Shown: positions 2,449 to 63,060 of the stretch, one piece after another
Numbering within the stretch: position 1 is the stretch's first letter
How the letters are laid out: every line of letters begins with the position of its first letter
From: Caproicibacterium amylolyticum
GTDB taxonomy: Bacteria > Bacillota > Clostridia > Oscillospirales > Acutalibacteraceae
NCBI RefSeq assembly: GCF_014467055.1
Contig: NZ_CP060696.1
Span: 620,001-684,000, forward strand
Length of the DNA: 64,000 bases
Reading direction: 5' to 3'
Translations under genes and position numbers: made by a program
Notes under the pieces: model-generated
What the model was told of the DNA's origin: nothing
Databases searched by the model: none
What the model saw: only the letters and a program-made list of their open reading frames with translations

Positions 2449-2620
2449 GCGCGTACAGTAAAAAAGTTTCGCCCGCCTCGCGTGCCCTCGAAGCCCGCGA
2501 GCGCTTCTGAGGATACTAAGGGCTTATGGTCAAGGGAAAGGTCGTGGCGCTGCGCGCGTCACACTGCGGTCGCTTCCTGAGAAAGCGACGGAAAGTAACT
2601 TCTTTAACATAATTTTCAAG
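2449..2620 (+). repeat. Dispersed intergenic repeat, copy R1
   Basis: This gene-free stretch between galK and galT begins with GTACAGTAAAAAAGTTTCGC and ends with the hairpin GTCGCTT-CCTGAG-AAAGCGAC followed by GGAAAGTAACTTCT. The start module recurs at 58.4 kb, and the ~120-bp distal part recurs inverted at 46.5 kb. It interrupts the gal operon without an obvious terminator. Confidence 0.75.
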
Positions 2621-20149: not shown

Positions 20150-20262
20150 GATTTACAAATGCCTTGGCTTGCAGCCCACCTTTTTCCAGAGGCAGGAACC
20201 CGTCAGCCTATTTCGCAAACGATTCCCCCCTGTTAGGGGAATCATCCCTAAGCGTTTTCTAA
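20150..20262 (+). repeat. Dispersed intergenic repeat, copy R2 (partial)
   Basis: GGCTTGCAGCCCACCT followed by CCAGAGGCAGGAACCC and TAGGGGAATCATCCCTAAG resembles the internal module at 58.62-58.69 kb. It fills the gap before the second MATE gene; no promoter is obvious. Confidence 0.6.
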
Positions 20263-27212: not shown

Positions 27213-30200
27213 TTATTCCTCCCTCTTTTTCCGCTTGAGGCCCCAGCGCAGAACAAAGAATGTTACCAAGGATGAAACGGCCAGTCCAACGCTCCAGAAA
27301 GGAATTGTATCTGGCACGTTTGTTTTCGGCAGAGTTTCGCTGCTGCTCTTGCTGCCGCTGCCAGTGGTGCCGGTAGTGCCGCCGGTTCCGTTTGTGCCGT
27401 TCGTACCGTTTGTGCCTCCAGTGCCGTTTGTACCCTTGGCTCCGCTGGTTCCGTTTGTACCACTGGCGCCATTGCCTCTGCTGCCGGAAGTTCCTGAGGT
27501 ACCGGAAGCATTGGAGTTGGAAGTCCCCGAAGCGCCGGAGCGGGTGGAAGAAGTACCGGAAGTTCCTGAAGTACCAGAGGTACCAGAAGTGCCGGAATTG
27601 CTGCTTGCTGTACCAGCCTGCTTGGTGTAATTAAACGTGGCTGGTGTAGTGTTGGATGCTTGTACATAAGCGTCATCAGCAGATTTTTTTAGTTCATAGC
27701 CGGTAATTTCCGGTGCTACAACAGTATAGTGCGTGCCGTTTGGCACTTCAATGGAAACTTCCGTATTGCCCTTTAGAGGAACGGTTGCGGTATTTCCACC
27801 GGCAGCATCGCCACGTAGTGACAATGTTTTTGTAGAGGAGGTGCTGGAAGTGCTGCTGGAAGAAGAACCAGTACCGTATTTCAGCGTACCTGTTTTGCCA
27901 TCACTGCGTTTGTAGGTAAAGGTGCCGTTTAATGCTGTTCCGTCCGAATTGCTCAGACGTACAGTGAAACCATATTCCTTCGCAATTTGAGTTTCATCTG
28001 TATTGGCATCATACTTCATCTGTACTGTCATGCTGCCGCTCTTAGAGTTCGGGTTGCGCTTATCGGTCACCGTAACGGCTGTAATGTTGCCGGCGGTAAC
28101 AGTTACATCTTGATCACCAGCTACAATATAATTGTTTGGTGCTTTTGTTTCGTGCAGTTTGTAAGCGCCGGCCGGCAGACGCTTGAAAGAGGCAATGCCG
28201 GTGTCACCGGTGGTAGCAGTTTGGAACACAGCACCGCCGGGTGTCTGCAGCTGGAAGGTTGCGCCGGAAAGACCGACATCTCCCGTGTCTTCGCCGTGCT
28301 TCGTTACATTTACGATGCTGGTGCCGACTTTCGGGTCGTAAGAAATCAGCAGCCAATCCTGTTTGTCGGAATTGTTAAAGTCGCCTTCGGAGAACTGTAC
28401 ATCTTTTTCTGTGGTTAAAACAGCTTTGTATGGCCTTGGTGTTTTTTTAGAACTAAATAAATCAGGTGGGGTAATTTCACGAATATAATACGGTGTATCG
28501 GAACCCCAGGCAAGCTTTGCAAATTCCACCTTGCCGTTGCTGTCGCTGGTAGCTTGCTGCAAAAGTGTGCCGCAAGCCTGATCTTTGTACAGCCCATAGA
28601 TAGCGCCTTTCAGCGGTGAGCCAGTTATGTGTTTTTCCGCAGCGTCCCCTGCACCACGAAGCATCAGGTTGCCCGCAAAAGTTGCGGTGTCTGCTTTGTT
28701 GGAAGGAGTTGACGCATTGTTGGAAGGAGTTGACGCACTGCTGGAAGGGGTTGATGCATTGCTGGAAGGGGTTGATGCATTGCTGGAAGGGGTTGATGCA
28801 TTGCTGGAAGGGGTTGATGCATTGCTGGAAGGGGTTGATGCATTGCTGGAAGGAGTTGACGTACTGCTGGAACTGGGATCTGTTTGCGGACTGGACTGTA
28901 CATAAAACACAATAGAACTTGCGCTATTGCGCTTATTGATAACTGGCACCGTATCGCCTATATTCACATCGGTAGAGAATTTCTTTTCAGTACCATAATA
29001 CTGGAAGGTTTTACCGAGTGCGTCATTGTTTACTGTTACCGCTACGCCGCCTGTACTGTCTGACTTTTCTGTAAAAGGAGAAGTGTCGTCCATTGTGTAG
29101 CCGCTTGGTGCCTGATATTCCTGTATCGTGTAAGTGTGTCCGGCAGGGACACGAAATACCGCCAAACCATTTTTGTTGGTTGAAACGGAGGCAAAAAGCT
29201 GACCAGTAAGCATGGTCATATCCGCGCAACGAATGTCAAACAGAGCACCAGCCAGTGGTGCGCCAACCTCGTCGGTTTTTTGCAGTTTAATTACCGAACG
29301 GTTTTCTGTGGCAAGGGTATTGGCTTCATCCACACTTTGCATAGTAATGGAATCCGTTGGAACGTTAGTGTCTGTATTATAGGTAATCAGGCTGCTGCCG
29401 TTAATCCCGGAAATAAGTGAGCCAATCTCCGCCGAAAAAGTAATACGGCAGGGGGTGGAAATATCGGTGCTCGGGCGCTTCACAGTCAGAATGCCGCGCC
29501 CCGGCTTGCCGCTGTCTGTACGGGCTACACTGTAAGTATAATCGGAACTTGGTTTCAATGTCTTCACAACATAGTTTGTGCTGTATACGCCATTAGATTC
29601 TTTCATGCTGGCTTCATCTACGCTCGACCCATCTGGCGTAACGATTGCATTTTGGAACTGCACACTGCCTTCCACCAACTGCAATCCGGCGGGGAGCTGT
29701 ATGGTAATGGTGTTATCCGTAGTGCCGGGAACAGTGGCACCAAGTTTGTTTACTAGCAGCTGGTACTGGAGAGCACCATTGCTCTGCGCAGGCAGCAAAA
29801 CTTTTTCTTCTGCTATGGGGCTTTTTACATTGGTTTGCTGAATGGCCGTTTCGTCATTAGACTGTGTTTTGTCCCAGTGTGCAATGGAGCGTTCGTTTTT
29901 AGTGTCGTCCTGCGCATCCCCACTTGTTTTATATAAATAGGTACTATTGCTTAACGTAAAATTAGGCAGGGGCTTGCCACTGGAAAAAGCAAGCTTTGCG
30001 GCAGCATCGCCTAACTCTTTGGCATTTGTTTCCGTGCCGTGGTCCGCAAGTTTGATATTAAACGTAAGTGTCAGTGTCTTTTTGTCCACACTGCTGCCTT
30101 GTATTGTGAAATACACAGTGCCGGGCGTTGTGGTCGTATCAGCAGTAACAACGTCAGTAATTGTTGAAATTTCCGTAGAAGTAATGCCGTCGGAAAGTGT

Positions 30201-33047
30201 GCCAGCAAGAGACCCGTCAACATAACTGGTGCCGGTGGGTAAAGCATTTTTTATGCACCAGCCGTTCATTGCGTCCTGCTTATTTTGGTTTACGGTAATT
30301 CGCAGCTTTAGCCTGTGGTTCACGTAGTCATAATTTGTGTCCGTACTGTTGGGCAGAACGTTTACAAAACCTGCCCGCAGCATGGTGCTGTTTACTGTTA
30401 CTTTACCAGTGCCTTTTTGTGGGCTAGACTGTGAACCAATCACAGCGGGGGCTTCTTTCGTATCCGTTTCATCTGCGGTGGCGTTGTCCCACTTTTCATA
30501 GTGATAGGAAGCAATTAGTGGCTGGCCGTTCTTATCCGTTACTATCGTACCAGCATCATTTGTTTCATCCGACTTGTCTGTGGTGACACTATGAGTGGTA
30601 TTGGGACCAGAAATAATCGTTTTTATATGATAAAAGGTATCGGCTACAAAGCGTCCCTGCGAATCGTCCGGGGCGGGGTTGCTTGCTTCGACTTGGTTAC
30701 CGCCACCTGTTAATGTGGTGTTATCTCGAGTGGTAAGTGTAACCGGTGTTGGGGTAACTGTTCCGCCGGGAACGGGGCCAGGGTTCACAAACAGCTTTGC
30801 CGTGTTGGCATACTGTGTACCGGTGCCACCGCTGTTGCCGGTGTAATCGTCTTCAACGGTTAAAACGGTTCTGTAGTGAATTACTTTTTTACCTTTGATT
30901 GGCGAAACTTTTTGCTGGGATTCATTGTTTTCCGCTGCATCTGTAACCTTTGTAGCCCATTTAATCTGAATATTGCTTGTAAAGTATTCTGCTTCACCGG
31001 TTGGTTTGGTTGATTTGGTCACAATACTTCCGGTTGCGCTACTGTGTGGCGAAAGTGTATCACCAGCTTCGGTAATCTGAATGTAATTATTGAAGCTGTC
31101 TGCTGTGTCTATGGTACCCTCGCTAACAGGGGTTACAGAACCCGTTAGCGGAACCAATCTTTGCCTGGTACTGCCTTCGGTGGAGTTGTAGCTAGAAGTG
31201 ATGGCATCCTGCAAGTCAACATATGTCCATTTTTCAACTGCTTCATTTAAATAAATTGACCAGTCAATAGTGTGAGTTTGTGCGTTGTAGATGCCCTCTT
31301 TACGCAGGGCAGCAATGCCTGGTTTTACTTGCGCTTCCTGCGCCGCACCGGAAGAACCACCCGTCCATTTATCTTTTAGGTCAAAGCCAACGTGTGGGTC
31401 ATTTTTCACGGAATTGTCTTCTGCGCCCTCTTGGTTAAAGAAATCGGTGTTTACCTTTGTGGTATACCAGATGTACAGAGGAGAATTAAAGTCTTTGCTG
31501 CCGTCACTCTTTTGAAGCGGTATGCTAATGGTACTCTTGCCGTTACTGTTTTCTGCAGGAGAAATTGTCCACACGCCGCCATCCGTATCATCTTTTTTAG
31601 CAGAAGCCTTTGTGCTGACATAAACAGTGCCGGTAAAGGTTTGGTTTTCAAGTTTGTCCTGAATCGTAGCATTGCTGATAGCGCGGCCGTTTTCGTTAAA
31701 AAGCAAACACCAGTAAACCATATTTTGTACTTTGTCGTAGGTGCCCTGCTTGCGCAGCCATGTTTGTGAAAAAGGTACGGTTACTTCGGAGCCTTTAAAG
31801 GAACCGCCGTCCATTGCTAACTCGGCGGTTGCCTTCACTTCACCGGTCAGAGCGGCCGTCGTGGTTTGCGAGCCGAAGGTGTGCGAGGGCTTCTGAAAGC
31901 TGTCGCTGGAAGGTTTGGTTTTGTAGGTCAAAACAATTTGTTTTGTGGAAGAGTCGGCATACATATTCAGTGCATTCGCAAAGTTAACTTCTACATCCGG
32001 TTTGTCGGTTGTATCATTATCTGCCTTGTCAATTTTATTTTCCGGGCTGCCCTTAAAACCGAGGGAACCCTTCACATAATCTCCGGGCATTTTAAAAGTC
32101 AAGCCTGTATAGGAGCAGTTGTTGGGGGTAATCACAGCTGTCCACACGATGCAGCCGGTGCTGACTTCGGTAAAAGTAACTTGGTTGCCATCCATAGAAA
32201 CCGGCTGCGTTACGGTTTCCTGATGTCCGGAAAGGTCAATTACCGGTGACTCGGGGTTATACTCCGGGAACTGCAGGTCCAGTGTAAAGTAGCTGGAGTC
32301 GCGGCTTTTGGCGCCTTCACCGCCGAAGTAGAGGGGCAGGGTTTGCTGTCTGTTTTTGTTAATGGTTGTTTTGTCCAGCTTGCAGCCAAGCTGGACGGTG
32401 CACTTTGGCAGATAATTATCACTTACTGCGGCGGCATTGTCTTTTTTTGCATAATAATTTAGCCATGCGCTGTAATTTGGGACAGCCCCATTATGTTTAT
32501 CTTTGCCAAAGGTCAAAATAGCTTTTTTCTCGGTTGAATCCAGGGACACACTACCGACAATTATGGAACTGAAAGCTGTGCCCCCTTCTGATAATGTAAT
32601 CGGTGAAAAACTGCCGGTGATATCTGCCGAACCCCCTGCGGCTTTGATACCAGCGCAGATTTCTTCCGGTAAATCCAGGTCATACGTTTTATCACTTTCA
32701 ATGGCGCTGTCTGCAGCATCTACAGCGCTGCGCTGCATTTTTTCAAGTGGAATCGTAAAGCTGTAGTTTATGGCACTGGTCCAGTCGGAGCTGTTTTTAT
32801 CCCAGCTGTAGCTGGCACCGTATGTAGAAGGCGTTGTTCCGCTCATGGTAACGCCCGCCTTAAGCGTTTGTTTGTTAATTAGGGTCGTAATATAAGGTGT
32901 GGTGCTTTCCTCTGCGTGCGCCTTCATGGGCACAAGGCCTGTAAAGGCCGAAACTGTTACAGCAAATGCGAGTGCGGAAGCCGCCGCCTTTCGCAGGATT
33001 TGCCGGATGGATGGGTGCGCGCGTCTGCGCAATTCAATCTTTTTCAT
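27213..33047 (-). CDS. Giant LPKTN-anchored surface adhesin/pilin-like protein
   Basis: About 1,944 residues, the largest gene in the window. Its signal peptide is long (residues 1-45, cleavage at AHA-EE). Residues about 50-1240 form a series of beta-rich adhesin or isopeptide-type modules, each with recurrent WSIYLNE/VYWCLLFNE-like strands. SpaA/Cna-B-like domains follow at about 1245-1345 (IKLQKTDEVGAPLAGALFDI with IQEYQAPSGY; Lys and Glu suit an internal isopeptide bond), 1460-1545 (PLKGAIYGLYKDQA) and 1575-1650 (VGLSGATFQLQTPGG with LHETKAPNNY). A seven-residue TPSSNAS repeat occupies 1394-1449 and Gly/Thr/Ser/Asn repeats about 1809-1900. The end is a wall-sorting signal: LPKTN (1906-1910), hydrophobic helix, RKKREE. 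ATG 33047 is 11 bases from GAGGA; TTG 33056 is too close to it. Adhesive function is inferred from domains. Confidence 0.9.
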   Translation of the reverse strand: MKKIELRRRAHPSIRQILRKAAASALAFAVTVSAFTGLVPMKAHAEESTTPYITTLINKQTLKAGVTMSGTTPSTYGASYSWDKNSSDWTSAINYSFTIPLEKMQRSAVDAADSAIESDKTYDLDLPEEICAGIKAAGGSADITGSFSPITLSEGGTAFSSIIVGSVSLDSTEKKAILTFGKDKHNGAVPNYSAWLNYYAKKDNAAAVSDNYLPKCTVQLGCKLDKTTINKNRQQTLPLYFGGEGAKSRDSSYFTLDLQFPEYNPESPVIDLSGHQETVTQPVSMDGNQVTFTEVSTGCIVWTAVITPNNCSYTGLTFKMPGDYVKGSLGFKGSPENKIDKADNDTTDKPDVEVNFANALNMYADSSTKQIVLTYKTKPSSDSFQKPSHTFGSQTTTAALTGEVKATAELAMDGGSFKGSEVTVPFSQTWLRKQGTYDKVQNMVYWCLLFNENGRAISNATIQDKLENQTFTGTVYVSTKASAKKDDTDGGVWTISPAENSNGKSTISIPLQKSDGSKDFNSPLYIWYTTKVNTDFFNQEGAEDNSVKNDPHVGFDLKDKWTGGSSGAAQEAQVKPGIAALRKEGIYNAQTHTIDWSIYLNEAVEKWTYVDLQDAITSSYNSTEGSTRQRLVPLTGSVTPVSEGTIDTADSFNNYIQITEAGDTLSPHSSATGSIVTKSTKPTGEAEYFTSNIQIKWATKVTDAAENNESQQKVSPIKGKKVIHYRTVLTVEDDYTGNSGGTGTQYANTAKLFVNPGPVPGGTVTPTPVTLTTRDNTTLTGGGNQVEASNPAPDDSQGRFVADTFYHIKTIISGPNTTHSVTTDKSDETNDAGTIVTDKNGQPLIASYHYEKWDNATADETDTKEAPAVIGSQSSPQKGTGKVTVNSTMLRAGFVNVLPNSTDTNYDYVNHRLKLRITVNQNKQDAMNGWCIKNALPTGTSYVDGSLAGTLSDGITSTEISTITDVVTADTTTTPGTVYFTIQGSSVDKKTLTLTFNIKLADHGTETNAKELGDAAAKLAFSSGKPLPNFTLSNSTYLYKTSGDAQDDTKNERSIAHWDKTQSNDETAIQQTNVKSPIAEEKVLLPAQSNGALQYQLLVNKLGATVPGTTDNTITIQLPAGLQLVEGSVQFQNAIVTPDGSSVDEASMKESNGVYSTNYVVKTLKPSSDYTYSVARTDSGKPGRGILTVKRPSTDISTPCRITFSAEIGSLISGINGSSLITYNTDTNVPTDSITMQSVDEANTLATENRSVIKLQKTDEVGAPLAGALFDIRCADMTMLTGQLFASVSTNKNGLAVFRVPAGHTYTIQEYQAPSGYTMDDTSPFTEKSDSTGGVAVTVNNDALGKTFQYYGTEKKFSTDVNIGDTVPVINKRNSASSIVFYVQSSPQTDPSSSSTSTPSSNASTPSSNASTPSSNASTPSSNASTPSSNASTPSSSASTPSNNASTPSNKADTATFAGNLMLRGAGDAAEKHITGSPLKGAIYGLYKDQACGTLLQQATSDSNGKVEFAKLAWGSDTPYYIREITPPDLFSSKKTPRPYKAVLTTEKDVQFSEGDFNNSDKQDWLLISYDPKVGTSIVNVTKHGEDTGDVGLSGATFQLQTPGGAVFQTATTGDTGIASFKRLPAGAYKLHETKAPNNYIVAGDQDVTVTAGNITAVTVTDKRNPNSKSGSMTVQMKYDANTDETQIAKEYGFTVRLSNSDGTALNGTFTYKRSDGKTGTLKYGTGSSSSSTSSTSSTKTLSLRGDAAGGNTATVPLKGNTEVSIEVPNGTHYTVVAPEITGYELKKSADDAYVQASNTTPATFNYTKQAGTASSNSGTSGTSGTSGTSGTSSTRSGASGTSNSNASGTSGTSGSRGNGASGTNGTSGAKGTNGTGGTNGTNGTNGTGGTTGTTGSGSKSSSETLPKTNVPDTIPFWSVGLAVSSLVTFFVLRWGLKRKKREE
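27345..27620 (-). repeat. Gly/Thr/Ser/Asn-coding low-complexity repeat in adhesin
   Basis: Imperfect 9-base-based repeats (units such as GGTACTTCC, GGTACGAAC) encode runs of GTS and GTN triplets ahead of the sorting signal, a flexible wall-spanning stalk. Reading them in other frames makes spurious Val-Pro-rich open frames. Confidence 0.85.
28701..28868 (-). repeat. 21-bp minisatellite, eight units, in adhesin gene
   Basis: Eight tandem 21-base units, plus-strand form GGAAGGGGTTGATGCATTGCT, at 28701-28868. The five central units are identical; the outer three differ at a few sites. Each unit encodes seven residues (TPSSNAS register), so changes in copy number keep the frame. Identity of the inner units points to recent expansion. 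Confidence 0.95.
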
Positions 33048-33271
33048 AATACACAAAATCCTCTTTCAGCGATGTTAAAATACTTGTACATATGAGTTTT
33101 AATTCAAATAGGAAATCGTTTAAAAAAGCATATATCTATTCCATACTAGAGTACCACATTATTCCTAATACTGTCAATGACGGCAACGACAATTTTCGTA
33201 GGAAAATTTTTGCGAAAAACGTTGCAAATTTGGCTTGAGAATGCGACTTATAATATAGATAGTAATATTCT
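33048..33271 (-). promoter_or_regulatory. Adhesin promoter and AT-rich leader
   Basis: Minus strand TTGACA (33172-33177), 18 bases, TACTCT (33148-33153) is the best promoter for the adhesin gene, leaving a leader of about 95 nt. No gene lies in this stretch. Confidence 0.5.
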
Positions 33272-46469: not shown

Positions 46470-46640
46470 AGAGAAAAAGAATTACTTTCCGCTGCTTTCT
46501 TAGAAAGCAATCGCAGTGTAGCGCGCGCAGCGCCACGACCTTTCTTTTGACCTTATCCTAAGAAGTGCTCGCAGGTTTGGAAGCCTGCAAGTCAGGCACC
46601 CAAGGCCTTTTCCTTTTGAGCACTTTGTCAGCAATAACCC
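46470..46640 (-). repeat. Dispersed intergenic repeat, copy R3 (inverted relative to R1)
   Basis: Read on the minus strand, this stretch matches R1 over about 120 bases: GCGAGC-CTTCT, GGTCAA..GAAAGGTCGTGGCG, CTGCGCGCG, ACACTGCG, the hairpin TGCTTTC/GAAAGCA and GGAAAGTAATTCT. A further GCAGG/CCTGC hairpin lies at 46574-46591. Confidence 0.75.
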
Positions 46641-46642
46641 CT

Positions 46643-46692
46643 AAGCCGGACAGCAGCAGGCACTTTTCGCTTGCTGCTGTCCGGCTTTTTTG
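46643..46692 (+). terminator. Terminator of cdaA-cdaR
   Basis: AAGCCGGACAGCAGCA (46643-46658) with TGCTGCTGTCCGGCTT (46672-46687), T-run. Confidence 0.9.
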
Positions 46693-51139: not shown

Positions 51140-51290
51140 TTACTTTGCCTTTACAGTAAAGTTTTCGCCAGCCTTGTTCACAAGGCTGCGGGTGTGGGTG
51201 GAACCCACGGTTTTGCCCTTAGCAACATAAGGAGCAGGTCTGGGCTGCAAGCCCAGGACCTTGCCCTTGTGCTAGAACTTATGAATATTT
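51140..51290 (+). repeat. Dispersed intergenic repeat, copy R4
   Basis: CAGTAAAGTTTTCGCCAGCC, hairpin AGCCTTGT-TC-ACAAGGCT, hairpin GTGGGT-GGAA-CCCAC, then TGGGCTGCAAGCCCA (the reverse complement of the module at 58.62 kb). The first part is nearly identical to 62.91 kb. It fills the gap between relA and the MBL gene. Confidence 0.75.
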
Positions 51291-57869: not shown

Positions 57870-57970
57870 AAAACACAGAGATAAAAACACAGCCCCGGCC
57901 GGTAGTCCGGGCGCAGCAGAAGTGCTGTCAGTAACCTGCCTCCTTGGTTGTCCGTTCTCTGTGGTTTGGA
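57870..57970 (+). ncRNA. yjdF riboswitch (azaaromatic-sensing motif) candidate
   Basis: Between the hup terminator and the YjdF gene, a closing stem CACAGAGA (57874-57881) / TCTCTGTG (57956-57963) encloses a GC-rich multi-hairpin region (CCCCGGCCGG-TAGTCCGGG and GCAGCAGAAGTGCTGT among others), and a GGAGG lies shortly after. YjdF genes are known to be preceded by the yjdF RNA motif, which binds azaaromatic compounds and switches translation. Assignment rests on the gene partner and the 8-bp closing stem, not on a covariance search. Confidence 0.65.
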
Positions 57971-57990
57971 TATTTTAAGGAGGAACCAAA

Positions 57991-58410
57991 ATGAATAAGA
58001 CCGTTTCCCAGCTGACCGTGTATTTTGAGGACCCGTTCTGGGTCGGTGTATGCGAGCGCAGCTGCGGAGAAAACTATGAAGTGTGCAGAATTGTGTTTGG
58101 CGCGGAACCAAAGGACTTTCAGGTGTATGACCTGCTGGTAAAGCACTGGAGCCGGATGCGTTTCAGCAGCGGTATTGCTGTGGAAGAAGCGCAGGAACGG
58201 AAAATCAATCCGAAGCACATGCAGCGTGCCGCAAACCGGCAGATGCAGCAGTGCGGCATTGGCACCAAGGCACAGCAGGCGCTCAAACAGCAGCAGGAAC
58301 AGGGCAGGCAGGCCAGAAAAATCCGTACCCGAGAGCAGCAGGAGGCGGAAAAAGAACGGCAGTTTGCGCTGCATGAGCAGAAGCGACGTGAAAAGCATAG
58401 AGGGCACTGA
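57991..58410 (+). CDS. yjdF: YjdF family protein
   Basis: A 139-residue DUF2992/YjdF protein. The N-terminal beta region reads TVSQLTVYFEDPFWVGVCER and YEVCRIVFGAEPKDFQVYDLL. Its C-terminal half is a basic, Gln/Lys/Arg-rich helix (HMQRAANRQMQQCG onward). The biochemical role is unknown; its riboswitch suggests involvement in coping with planar nitrogen heterocycles. ATG 57991 is 7 bases after AAGGAGG. Confidence 0.85.
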   Translation: MNKTVSQLTVYFEDPFWVGVCERSCGENYEVCRIVFGAEPKDFQVYDLLVKHWSRMRFSSGIAVEEAQERKINPKHMQRAANRQMQQCGIGTKAQQALKQQQEQGRQARKIRTREQQEAEKERQFALHEQKRREKHRGH

Positions 58411-58417
58411 AGCGTCC

Positions 58418-58750
58418 GTACAGTAAAAGTTTCGCCCGCCTTTTCAAAGGCGGCAGGTGTGGGTGAAGCCCACGGTCTTGTCCCTTGACCATAAAGCACT
58501 TTCTATTTAGAAAAAAGGAAACAAGCAAAAGTTATCCTGCGGCGGCGAAGCCACGCCGCACAGAAGCAGCGTTTAAGGCTGACAGGCTGCTGGTAGGAGG
58601 TGCTTACAAAGGTCAAGACCTGGGCTTGCAGCCCACCTCTTACCAGAGGCGGGAACCCTTTTGCCCTGCGGGCATCTTCCCTAAAGGGGAGCAATCACAC
58701 TGCGGTCGCTTTCTCAGAAAGCGACGGAAAGCAACTTCTAAACACTTTTG
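58418..58750 (+). repeat. Dispersed intergenic repeat, copy R5 (most complete)
   Basis: Modules in order: GTACAGTAAAAGTTTCGC; hairpin CCGCCTTT-TC-AAAGGCGG; hairpin GTGGGT-GAAG-CCCAC; TGCGGCGGCGAAGCCACGCCGCA; hairpin TGGGCT-TGC-AGCCCA with CCAGAGGCGGGAACCC; and hairpin GTCGCTTTC-TCA-GAAAGCGAC with GGAAAGCAACTTCT. Pieces recur in R1, R2, R3, R4 and R6. No open frame fits the whole stretch. Confidence 0.8.
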
Positions 58751-58781
58751 CGTACAAATTTGAGAAAGGAATCTATATTTT

Positions 58782-59027
58782 ATGAGGTTGGACAAATATT
58801 TAAAAATATCGCGCATTATCAAACGCCGCACCGTTGCAAATGAAGCCTGTGACGCTGGTCGTGTGCTGGTGAACGGCAAGAGCGCTCGCGCGTCTTATGA
58901 CGTAAAGGTTGGAGATACGCTGGAAATTTCGCTGGGCGCGCACACCGTAAAGGCGGAGGTGCTGAGTGTGAGTGAATATGCCACCAAGGACAGCGCCGCT
59001 TCCATGTATCGTATGCTGGAAGAATAG
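58782..59027 (+). CDS. rqcP: S4-domain ribosome quality-control factor
   Basis: An 81-residue S4 RNA-binding protein of the RqcP/YabO (HslR-like) family, which works with RqcH on stalled 50S subunits to add C-terminal tails. The S4 motif RLDKYLKISRIIKRRTVANEACDAGRVLVNG occupies residues 2-32, followed by KVGDTLEISLG. ATG 58782 follows GAAAGGAATC. Its position directly upstream of yabP-yabQ-divIC matches the B. subtilis order yabO-yabP-yabQ-divIC-yabR. Confidence 0.93.
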   Translation: MRLDKYLKISRIIKRRTVANEACDAGRVLVNGKSARASYDVKVGDTLEISLGAHTVKAEVLSVSEYATKDSAASMYRMLEE

Positions 59028-62904: not shown

Positions 62905-63060
62905 GCACTTTCAGTAAAGTTTTCGCCAGCCTTGTTCACAAGGCTGTGGGGGTTGGGGCTTTGCCCCAAGGTCTTGACCGTAAAGCCCTTGCTGTTAAAA
63001 CAAGTAACCAGCAGCATTCCCTGCGGCGGCGAAGTCACGTCGCAAAGAATCACCCGCCAT
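62905..63060 (+). repeat. Dispersed intergenic repeat, copy R6
   Basis: TCAGTAAAGTTTTCGCCAGCC, hairpin AGCCTTGT-TC-ACAAGGCT (identical to R4), hairpin TTGGGGC-TTT-GCCCCAA in place of GTGGGT/CCCAC, GGTCTTGACC, then CCTGCGGCGGCGAAG with TCACGTCGC as in R5. The rest of the 450-base gap up to hpf is AT-rich with no gene seen. Confidence 0.8.

What the first reader, a model, noticed from the sequence alone, without database searches (positions are those of the whole stretch)
58418..58750. Mosaic family of hairpin-rich intergenic repeats, at least six copies in 64 kb
Non-coding stretches at 2449-2620, 20150-20262, 46470-46640, 51140-51290, 58418-58750 and 62905-63060 share modules in varying combinations and in both orientations, all in the gaps after gene ends. 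The 58.4 kb copy carries nearly all modules. No open frame or transposase accompanies them. They could be a REP/MITE-like family moved in trans, or a structured RNA/3'-end element specific to this lineage. I know of no named family with these modules.
Basis: partly seen in the sequence, partly recalled or inferred. Interest (0 to 1): 0.75.

Follow-up and report, generated by a model that had tools for sequence, protein, structure and literature searches.

The report
Hairpin-built mobile repeats behind genes
The six non-coding stretches belong to a real family of short, hairpin-built DNA repeats that spread in some gut and rumen bacteria and settle mostly just behind the stop codons of genes, much like the REP and BOX repeats of other bacteria but with sequences not found described so far.

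Summary
All six stretches are copies of one modular family: 57 clusters in the 617 kb of this genome that I held, none more than 25 nt into a called gene, no profile match in shuffled or reversed DNA. Elements are trains of hairpins; the usual end is GCCCKTACAGTAAAAGTTYCGCC plus a hairpin, with a sharp boundary. Four of six window copies lie in gaps 67-348 nt shorter in relatives, so they are insertions. One copy replaced the end and stop codon of leuB. The core occurs in 5 of 245 genomes of the order, in 6-38 copies: patchy, not confined to this lineage. Stems vary with compensation. End E faces stop codons more often than starts in several genomes; closeness to the stop is partly explained by compact gaps. 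No clear target duplication, no Y1 transposase in this genome, no Rfam family, no match in phage or plasmid records. Best reading: non-autonomous mobile repeats of the REP/BOX kind, probably transcribed in 3'UTRs, mobiliser unknown. In one other genome the unit ends in a terminator-like hairpin.

The parts
58414..58503 (+). End module E of the 58.4 kb copy: terminal sequence GTCCGTACAGTAAAAGTTTCGCC, hairpin H1 (58436-58453), hairpin H2 (58459-58473). Three bases lie between it and the stop codon of the 57991-58410 gene.
58487..58565 (+). Module M: linker and hairpin H3 (GCGGCGGCGAAGCCACGCCGC, 58539-58559); overlaps the inner part of module E as I defined it
   Evidence: limits by eye
58609..58691 (+). 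Module B: hairpin 58620-58635 and a following GC-rich stretch
   Evidence: limits by eye
58694..58739 (+). End module C: hairpin GTCGCTTTCTCAGAAAGCGAC (58705-58725) and end GGAAAGCAACTTCT
2449..2603 (+). Copy 1: decayed E-like end (about 2449-2476), T module, C end. Between the galactokinase gene (ends 2445) and a GalP_UDP_transf gene.
20158..20238 (+). Copy 2: B module only
46481..46608 (-). Copy 3, inverted: C end and T module. Lies between the stop codon (46456) and a terminator-like hairpin at 46643-46687.
51147..51270 (+). Copy 4: E end of the second type (AGCCTTGTTCACAAGGCT hairpin), then a hairpin inverted with respect to 58606-58635
62905..63045 (+). Copy 5: E end of the second type and M module. 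Three bases lie between it and the stop codon of the 62026-62901 gene.

Best explanation
This is a family of non-autonomous mobile DNA repeats built from exchangeable hairpin modules, of the same general kind as BIME/REPIN, BOX and NIME repeats. SHOWN: modular structure, sharp ends, empty sites in relatives, intergenic placement, patchy high-copy distribution across an order, compensatory variation of stems, and a bias of the E end towards the stop codon of the neighbouring gene. INFERRED: copies move as DNA through a hairpin-recognising enzyme supplied in trans and possibly lost from this genome; modules are exchanged by recombination between copies; copies are tolerated best between stop codon and terminator, where they are transcribed as 3'UTR hairpins and may affect termination, RNA decay or translation of the upstream gene.
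For: The family is far above chance. The outer boundary is sharp: 0.45-0.84 bits at the four terminal columns, 0.11 at the next column out, 53 of 61 ends used. Four of six window copies sit in gaps of 371, 454, 411 and 168 nt; relatives with those genes in order have 23-40, 157-172, 222-239 and 97-101 nt. In leuB, 10 of 10 relatives have 356 codons; here it has 357 and the end lies in the element. None of 57 clusters overlaps a called gene by more than 25 nt, and five reach 2-13 nt into a gene's end. 16 of 57 are in convergent gaps against 55 of 413 gaps of the held DNA (Fisher p 0.009), 3 of 57 in divergent gaps against 55 of 413 (p 0.09). The core (up to 3 mismatches) occurs in 5 of 245 genomes of the order, with 0 control hits. 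Stems covary: H2 pairs at 0.911 against 0.563 when arms are dealt anew (93 of 100 copies); H3 in genome G140 at 0.99 against 0.666 (15 copies, 7 different arms); on alignment A2, 34 cells with changes on both sides against 10.3 in shuffles.
Against: No mobiliser was found; Y1_Tnp is absent from this genome. No target duplication stands out in 24 end pairs: the best of 25 offsets reaches an uncorrected p of about 0.01 for lengths 2-4 (5, 4 and 2 pairs), which that many tests can give. Copies here are 72-86% alike over 100 nt or more, so movement is not recent. The bias of E towards stops (29 of 36 in four other genomes; 37 of 51 here) is not predicted by a pure DNA parasite without targeting. 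Wobble is mixed: G.T against A.C is 7 to 8 in H1 of this genome (34 of 54 copies) but 35 to 6 in its H2, mostly at positions 6-8 outside the five-pair stem, 17 of them one fixed T.G; in H3 of other genomes it is 28 to 24 over 85 sites. In one search two of five measures (pairs with double changes, further pair types) do not exceed shuffles. In the wider set 6 of 74 cores lie inside called genes.
Confidence: 0.7

Rival explanations
1. Structured 3'-end RNA element: the hairpin train is kept at gene ends because it works in the mRNA, as a terminator, decay barrier or translation-termination signal, and copies were spread by that use.
For: The E end faces stop codons in 37 of 51 cases here and 29 of 36 in four other genomes. 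Median distance from stop to a stop-facing E end is 5 nt here. In genome G140, 17 of 22 copies have the end motif CTCAT, 14 of those 17 at 171-179 nt from the core; 17 of 17 are followed by a hairpin and 15 have an A-tract at its foot. The 46.48 kb copy and the leuB copy lie between the stop codon and a terminator-like hairpin. T.G exceeds A.C in H2 of this genome, 35 to 6.
Against: Distribution is patchy: 5 of 245 genomes of the order, 4 of 11 of the genus, this one included. Orthologous gaps of four window copies lack the element although gene order is kept. G.T does not exceed A.C in H1 or H3. In this genome I find no terminator supplied: of 39 stop-adjacent gene ends 0 have one before the element and 7 after it, much like control gene ends, 61 of 267.
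Confidence: 0.2
2. MITEs of an ordinary DDE insertion sequence, with E and C ends as terminal inverted repeats.
For: E ends occur inverted at both sides in 9 of 57 clusters, E with C in 11, C with C in 2. In some other species the core sits inside a longer inverted repeat (by eye: L148, L163).
Against: No clear target duplication in 24 pairs. The leader outside the core differs between lineages (by eye). No transposase between the one inward pair of ends checked with family models (229-232 kb).
Confidence: 0.07
3. Ordinary decayed terminators or chance similarity of GC-rich hairpins.
For: Hairpins are common at gene ends (general knowledge).
Against: Zero matches in shuffled or reversed DNA, a shared 23-nt terminal sequence outside the hairpin, 0 control hits in 245 genomes.
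Confidence: 0.02

Closest known systems
REP / BIME / REPIN repeats
   Same: Extragenic palindromes in many copies, singly, in inverted pairs and in clusters (PMC3116915, passages seen). In E. [quoted passage not shown]
   Different: No GTAG tag and no unpaired CGTC tag, no Y1 transposase in this genome, longer units (mostly 285-344 nt) with several hairpin kinds. The words Firmicutes and Clostridi do not occur in the main text of the survey of tagged REPs, PMC3733652 (passages seen).
BOX elements of pneumococcus
   Same: Modular elements with end modules and optional inner modules, over-represented between convergent genes, often clustered with or inserted into other repeats (PMC3049150, passages seen).
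   Different: BOX has target duplications; none is clear here. Sequences were not compared directly.
Neisserial intergenic mosaic elements (NIME)
   Same: Mosaics of short inverted repeats and longer repeats in intergenic arrays (PMC3898611, passages seen).
   Different: The dRS3 pattern ATTCCC(N8)GGGAAT is absent from the window at up to 1 mismatch.

Membership tests
REP/REPIN superfamily (GTAG/CGTC) | Short palindrome in high extragenic copy number | tested here: met
   57 clusters, none more than 25 nt into a called gene
REP/REPIN superfamily (GTAG/CGTC) | Unpaired GTAG or CGTC tag at one end of the palindrome | tested here: not met
   The E end reads AAAAGTTTCGCC before the stem; the C end contains CGTC, but it can pair with GACG in the hairpin (by eye; tag definition)
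REP/REPIN superfamily (GTAG/CGTC) | Associated Y1 tyrosine transposase (RAYT) | tested here: not met
   0 matches of PF01797 in the own genome, control rings in 5 of 14. 9 of 20 other carrier genomes have a Y1_Tnp match; whether these are RAYTs or plain IS200 was not resolved
MITE | Terminal inverted repeats | tested here: inconclusive
   E inverted at both ends in 9 of 57 clusters, E with C in 11, C with C in 2, one or no sharp end in 35
MITE | Target-site duplication | tested here: not met
   24 end pairs, lengths 2-9, 25 offsets each: only uncorrected p of about 0.01 for lengths 2-4; decay cannot be excluded
MITE | Insertion sequence with the same ends | tested here: inconclusive
   No autonomous copy seen in held stretches; whole genomes were not scanned for transposases other than Y1
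BOX | Sequence homology to boxA/boxB/boxC | not tested
   No direct comparison made
NIME | dRS3 repeat ATTCCC(N8)GGGAAT | tested here: not met
   0 matches in the window at up to 1 mismatch, 0.16 expected
Rfam families | Match to a curated covariance model | tested here: not met
   Window: only a riboswitch at 57871-57971. 14 loci: three matches, to a T-box, that riboswitch and a tRNA, none at the repeats. Permissive scan of 58380-58790: best E 0.7, far below its cut-off

The most novel reading that the evidence does not exclude
These are portable gene 3' ends: mobile hairpin cassettes that enter specifically at the stop codon. They use the stretch of DNA left single-stranded by naked nascent RNA between the terminating ribosome and RNA polymerase, and can supply the gene with a stop codon and, in some lineages, a terminator. 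Stems are renewed as whole hairpins, which keeps the fold while the sequence changes.
Probability: 0.13. Interest if true: 0.82.

Novelty: new variant of a known kind. Interest (0 to 1): 0.52.

Why it matters
It extends the REP/BOX kind of mosaic repeats to an order of gut and rumen bacteria for which seven searches of the held papers listed no paper whose title, or abstract as far as shown, describes it. A core sequence is shared across genera although the elements come and go between species. The facing of stop codons, the element-supplied stop in leuB and the terminator-like end in one genome give a system in which to ask why such repeats settle at gene ends: by targeting or by selection. 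Whole stems that differ between otherwise similar copies while staying paired also raise a testable question about how hairpin DNA is copied or exchanged.

Tried and rejected
Rfam: nothing at the repeats. RAYT/Y1 link: not in this genome, in 9 of 20 other carriers, so no consistent link. Phage and plasmid records: no match with the 58.4 kb copy; one exact match of the core pattern in viral contigs, not followed up. Autonomous copy between inward-facing ends: the 229-232 kb pair encloses an rRNA dimethylase, a homocysteine methyltransferase and a small ORF without a family; the ORFs between the ends in L294 13247-15776 and L077 717-4987 were listed but not scanned with family models. Target duplications: none clear. 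Terminator role in this genome: no support. RsmI as a second C-terminus test: relatives vary too much to judge, and one row (L277) was misregistered and dropped. A first H3 pairing test had a wrong register and was redone. A first pattern for G140 ends missed most copies and was redone. Alignment A2 uses 41 of the 54 E-like sites; the 13 left out are chance matches (for example window:32880, L184, L194, L247, L248) or real copies with large insertions or losses, so A2 is hand-picked. In the H1 test, 20 of 54 sites fitted neither stem pattern and were dropped; H1 of the first stem type alone is weak (0.817 against 0.756, maximum 0.803).

Full report
WHAT WAS CHECKED. Module profiles find all six in the window, and each of the five iterated profiles finds nothing in shuffled or reversed DNA of the same 617,218 bases. 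Much of that DNA was fetched because it held matches, so its 57 clusters are not a density. The unbiased density comes from 20 evenly spaced stretches of 20 kb: 5 clusters in 400 kb. The window, with 6 in 64 kb, is a rich patch. Whole-genome searches give 55 places with the 58.4 kb copy (40 of 87 candidates scored), 41 sites of the terminal sequence at up to 3 mismatches against 5 for the pattern read backwards, and 61 places with a covariance model of the end module (150 of 1278 candidates scored).

ANATOMY. An element is a row of hairpins between two end modules. End E begins GCCCKTACAGTAAAAGTTYCGCC. Information is 0.74, 0.45, 0.69 and 0.84 bits at the four outermost columns and at most 0.18 bits in the 16 columns outside (53 of 61 ends). 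It is followed by hairpin H1, in two main stem types, and hairpin H2. End C is a different end, (A/G)TTACTTTCCGTCGC plus a TTTCTNAGAAA hairpin. Between them lie a linker with hairpin H3 (module M) and further hairpins (T or B). Of 22 clusters with two sharp ends 15 measure 285-344 nt. Combinations vary, hence the mosaic. An alignment of 21 chosen elements shows the common order.

INSERTIONS. For four of the six window copies the flanking genes are in order in relatives. The gaps are 371 nt here against 33, 40, 23 and 30 in G001, G002, G003 and G006; 454 against 172, 158, 172 and 157; 411 against 222 and 239 (G002, G003); 168 against 97 and 101 (G002, G003). Among the other gaps that could be compared the largest difference is 89 nt (52 against 141 in G003). 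The other two copies lie where no orthologous pair was found in the stretches fetched. At 46.48 kb the copy sits between the stop codon and a terminator-like hairpin. In leuB 10 of 10 relatives have 356 codons; this gene has 357, and its last residues and stop lie in the element. No target duplication is clear in 24 pairs of ends, of which some have a weak second end; for lengths 2-4 the best of 25 offsets has an uncorrected p of about 0.01.

PLACEMENT. None of 57 clusters overlaps a called gene by more than 25 nt; five reach 2-13 nt into a gene's end. 38 lie in tandem, 16 in convergent and 3 in divergent gaps. Gene calls come from a simple codon-usage caller of my own. In tandem gaps the stop side is the nearer one in 33 of 38. 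E ends face a stop 37 times (median 5 nt) and a start 14 times (median 55.5 nt); C ends face a stop 10 times and a start 15 times (Fisher p 0.011). Closeness alone is weaker evidence. 36 of 70 stop-facing ends of all types lie within 20 nt; uniform placement gives 20.6, or 28.6 (maximum 37 in 2000 trials) if 40 nt before starts are barred. 22 of 37 stop-facing E ends lie within 8 nt, against 6.6 expected, or up to 16.8 if 80 nt before starts are barred; in convergent gaps the nearer side is within 8 nt in 8 of 16 against 5.3 (p 0.07). In stretches of four other carrier genomes I counted 38 cores: 1 inside a called gene, 1 without an upstream neighbour, 29 facing a stop at a median of 22 nt from the core (24 within 40 nt) and 7 facing a start (none within 40 nt). 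In the wider set, 6 of 74 usable cores lie inside called genes; of 60 between two called genes 34 face a stop, 15 of them within 50 nt, and 26 a start, 2 within 50 nt.

DISTRIBUTION. Of 245 genomes drawn from the order, 5 have it at up to 3 mismatches (this genome, three others of its family and one of another family), in 6 to 38 copies, with no control hit in any. Within the genus 4 of 11 genomes have the end module (61, 7, 1 and 2 places). The sequence outside and beyond the core differs by lineage (by eye). No match in phage or plasmid records.

STRUCTURE. Stems change on both arms together. H2 in 93 of 100 copies from other lineages pairs at 0.911, against 0.563 when arms are dealt anew (the register was chosen by best hairpin, which favours own pairing); with a register fixed by the loop and the inner pairs left out it is 0.833 against 0.537, 75 copies. 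H3 in genome G140: 104 of 105 cells paired with 7 different arms in 15 copies; over 85 sites of all other genomes 0.75 against 0.472. On the alignment of 41 own ends 85.5% of cells pair, against 78.3% in shuffles and at most 55.1% when slid, with 34 double changes against 10.3; the number of pairs with double changes (5 against 4.7) and of further pair types (14 against 15.7) do not exceed shuffles, and H2 there pairs in only 70.6% of cells. Wobble pairs give no clear answer on an RNA strand. G.T against A.C is 7 to 8 in own H1 and 28 to 24 in H3 of other genomes, but 35 to 6 in own H2, mostly at positions 6-8 beyond the five-pair stem. The hairpins may be kept as DNA, as RNA, or by exchange of whole hairpins.

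MECHANISM. Most likely these are DNA repeats that moved with help from an enzyme in trans and persist where they do least harm, between stop codon and terminator. Past movement is shown by the empty sites; the enzyme is not known. The directional bias means either that entry is polar with respect to transcription or that the E-first order is selected. In E. [quoted passage not shown] In genome G140, 17 of 22 copies have a CTCAT end, 14 of these at 171-179 nt from the core; 17 of 17 are followed by a hairpin, 15 with an A-tract at the foot, which looks like a terminator supplied by the element. In this genome no such end was found: of 39 stop-adjacent gene ends 7 have a terminator-like hairpin after the element, against 61 of 267 control ends.

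LITERATURE. Seven searches of the held library sought this family (one of them with the sequence itself), two sought comparators and one a guessed genus. None listed a paper that describes this family by title, or by abstract as far as shown. Most subscription papers are not in the library. Of the papers cited I saw passages only.

Noticed in passing
window 57871-57971: An azaaromatic (yjdF) riboswitch precedes the DUF2992 gene at 57991-58410, whose end carries the 58.4 kb repeat.
   Followed up: no
window 27213-33056 (-): Large protein of 1947 codons with SpaA prealbumin-like domains; a run of 21-nt tandem repeats lies within it at 28671-28901.
   Followed up: no
L286:3460-4180: In genome G140 a gap holds a tandem array of units of roughly 90 nt with a hairpin, next to copies of the core (by eye).
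   Followed up: no
L034, L039, L057 (genome G001): G001 has tandem arrays in which E or C ends alternate with another module (GACGCAGACTGTAAAAGAAGC) that I did not see in this genome's elements (by eye).
   Followed up: no
L080, L082, L148, L163: In some species the core lies just inside sequences that look like insertion-sequence ends: GGGGCTGTCGCATTAA in L080 and L082, and an inverted pair AATGTCATCAACTTAA / TTAAGTTGATGACATT in L148, similar in L163 (by eye).
   Followed up: no
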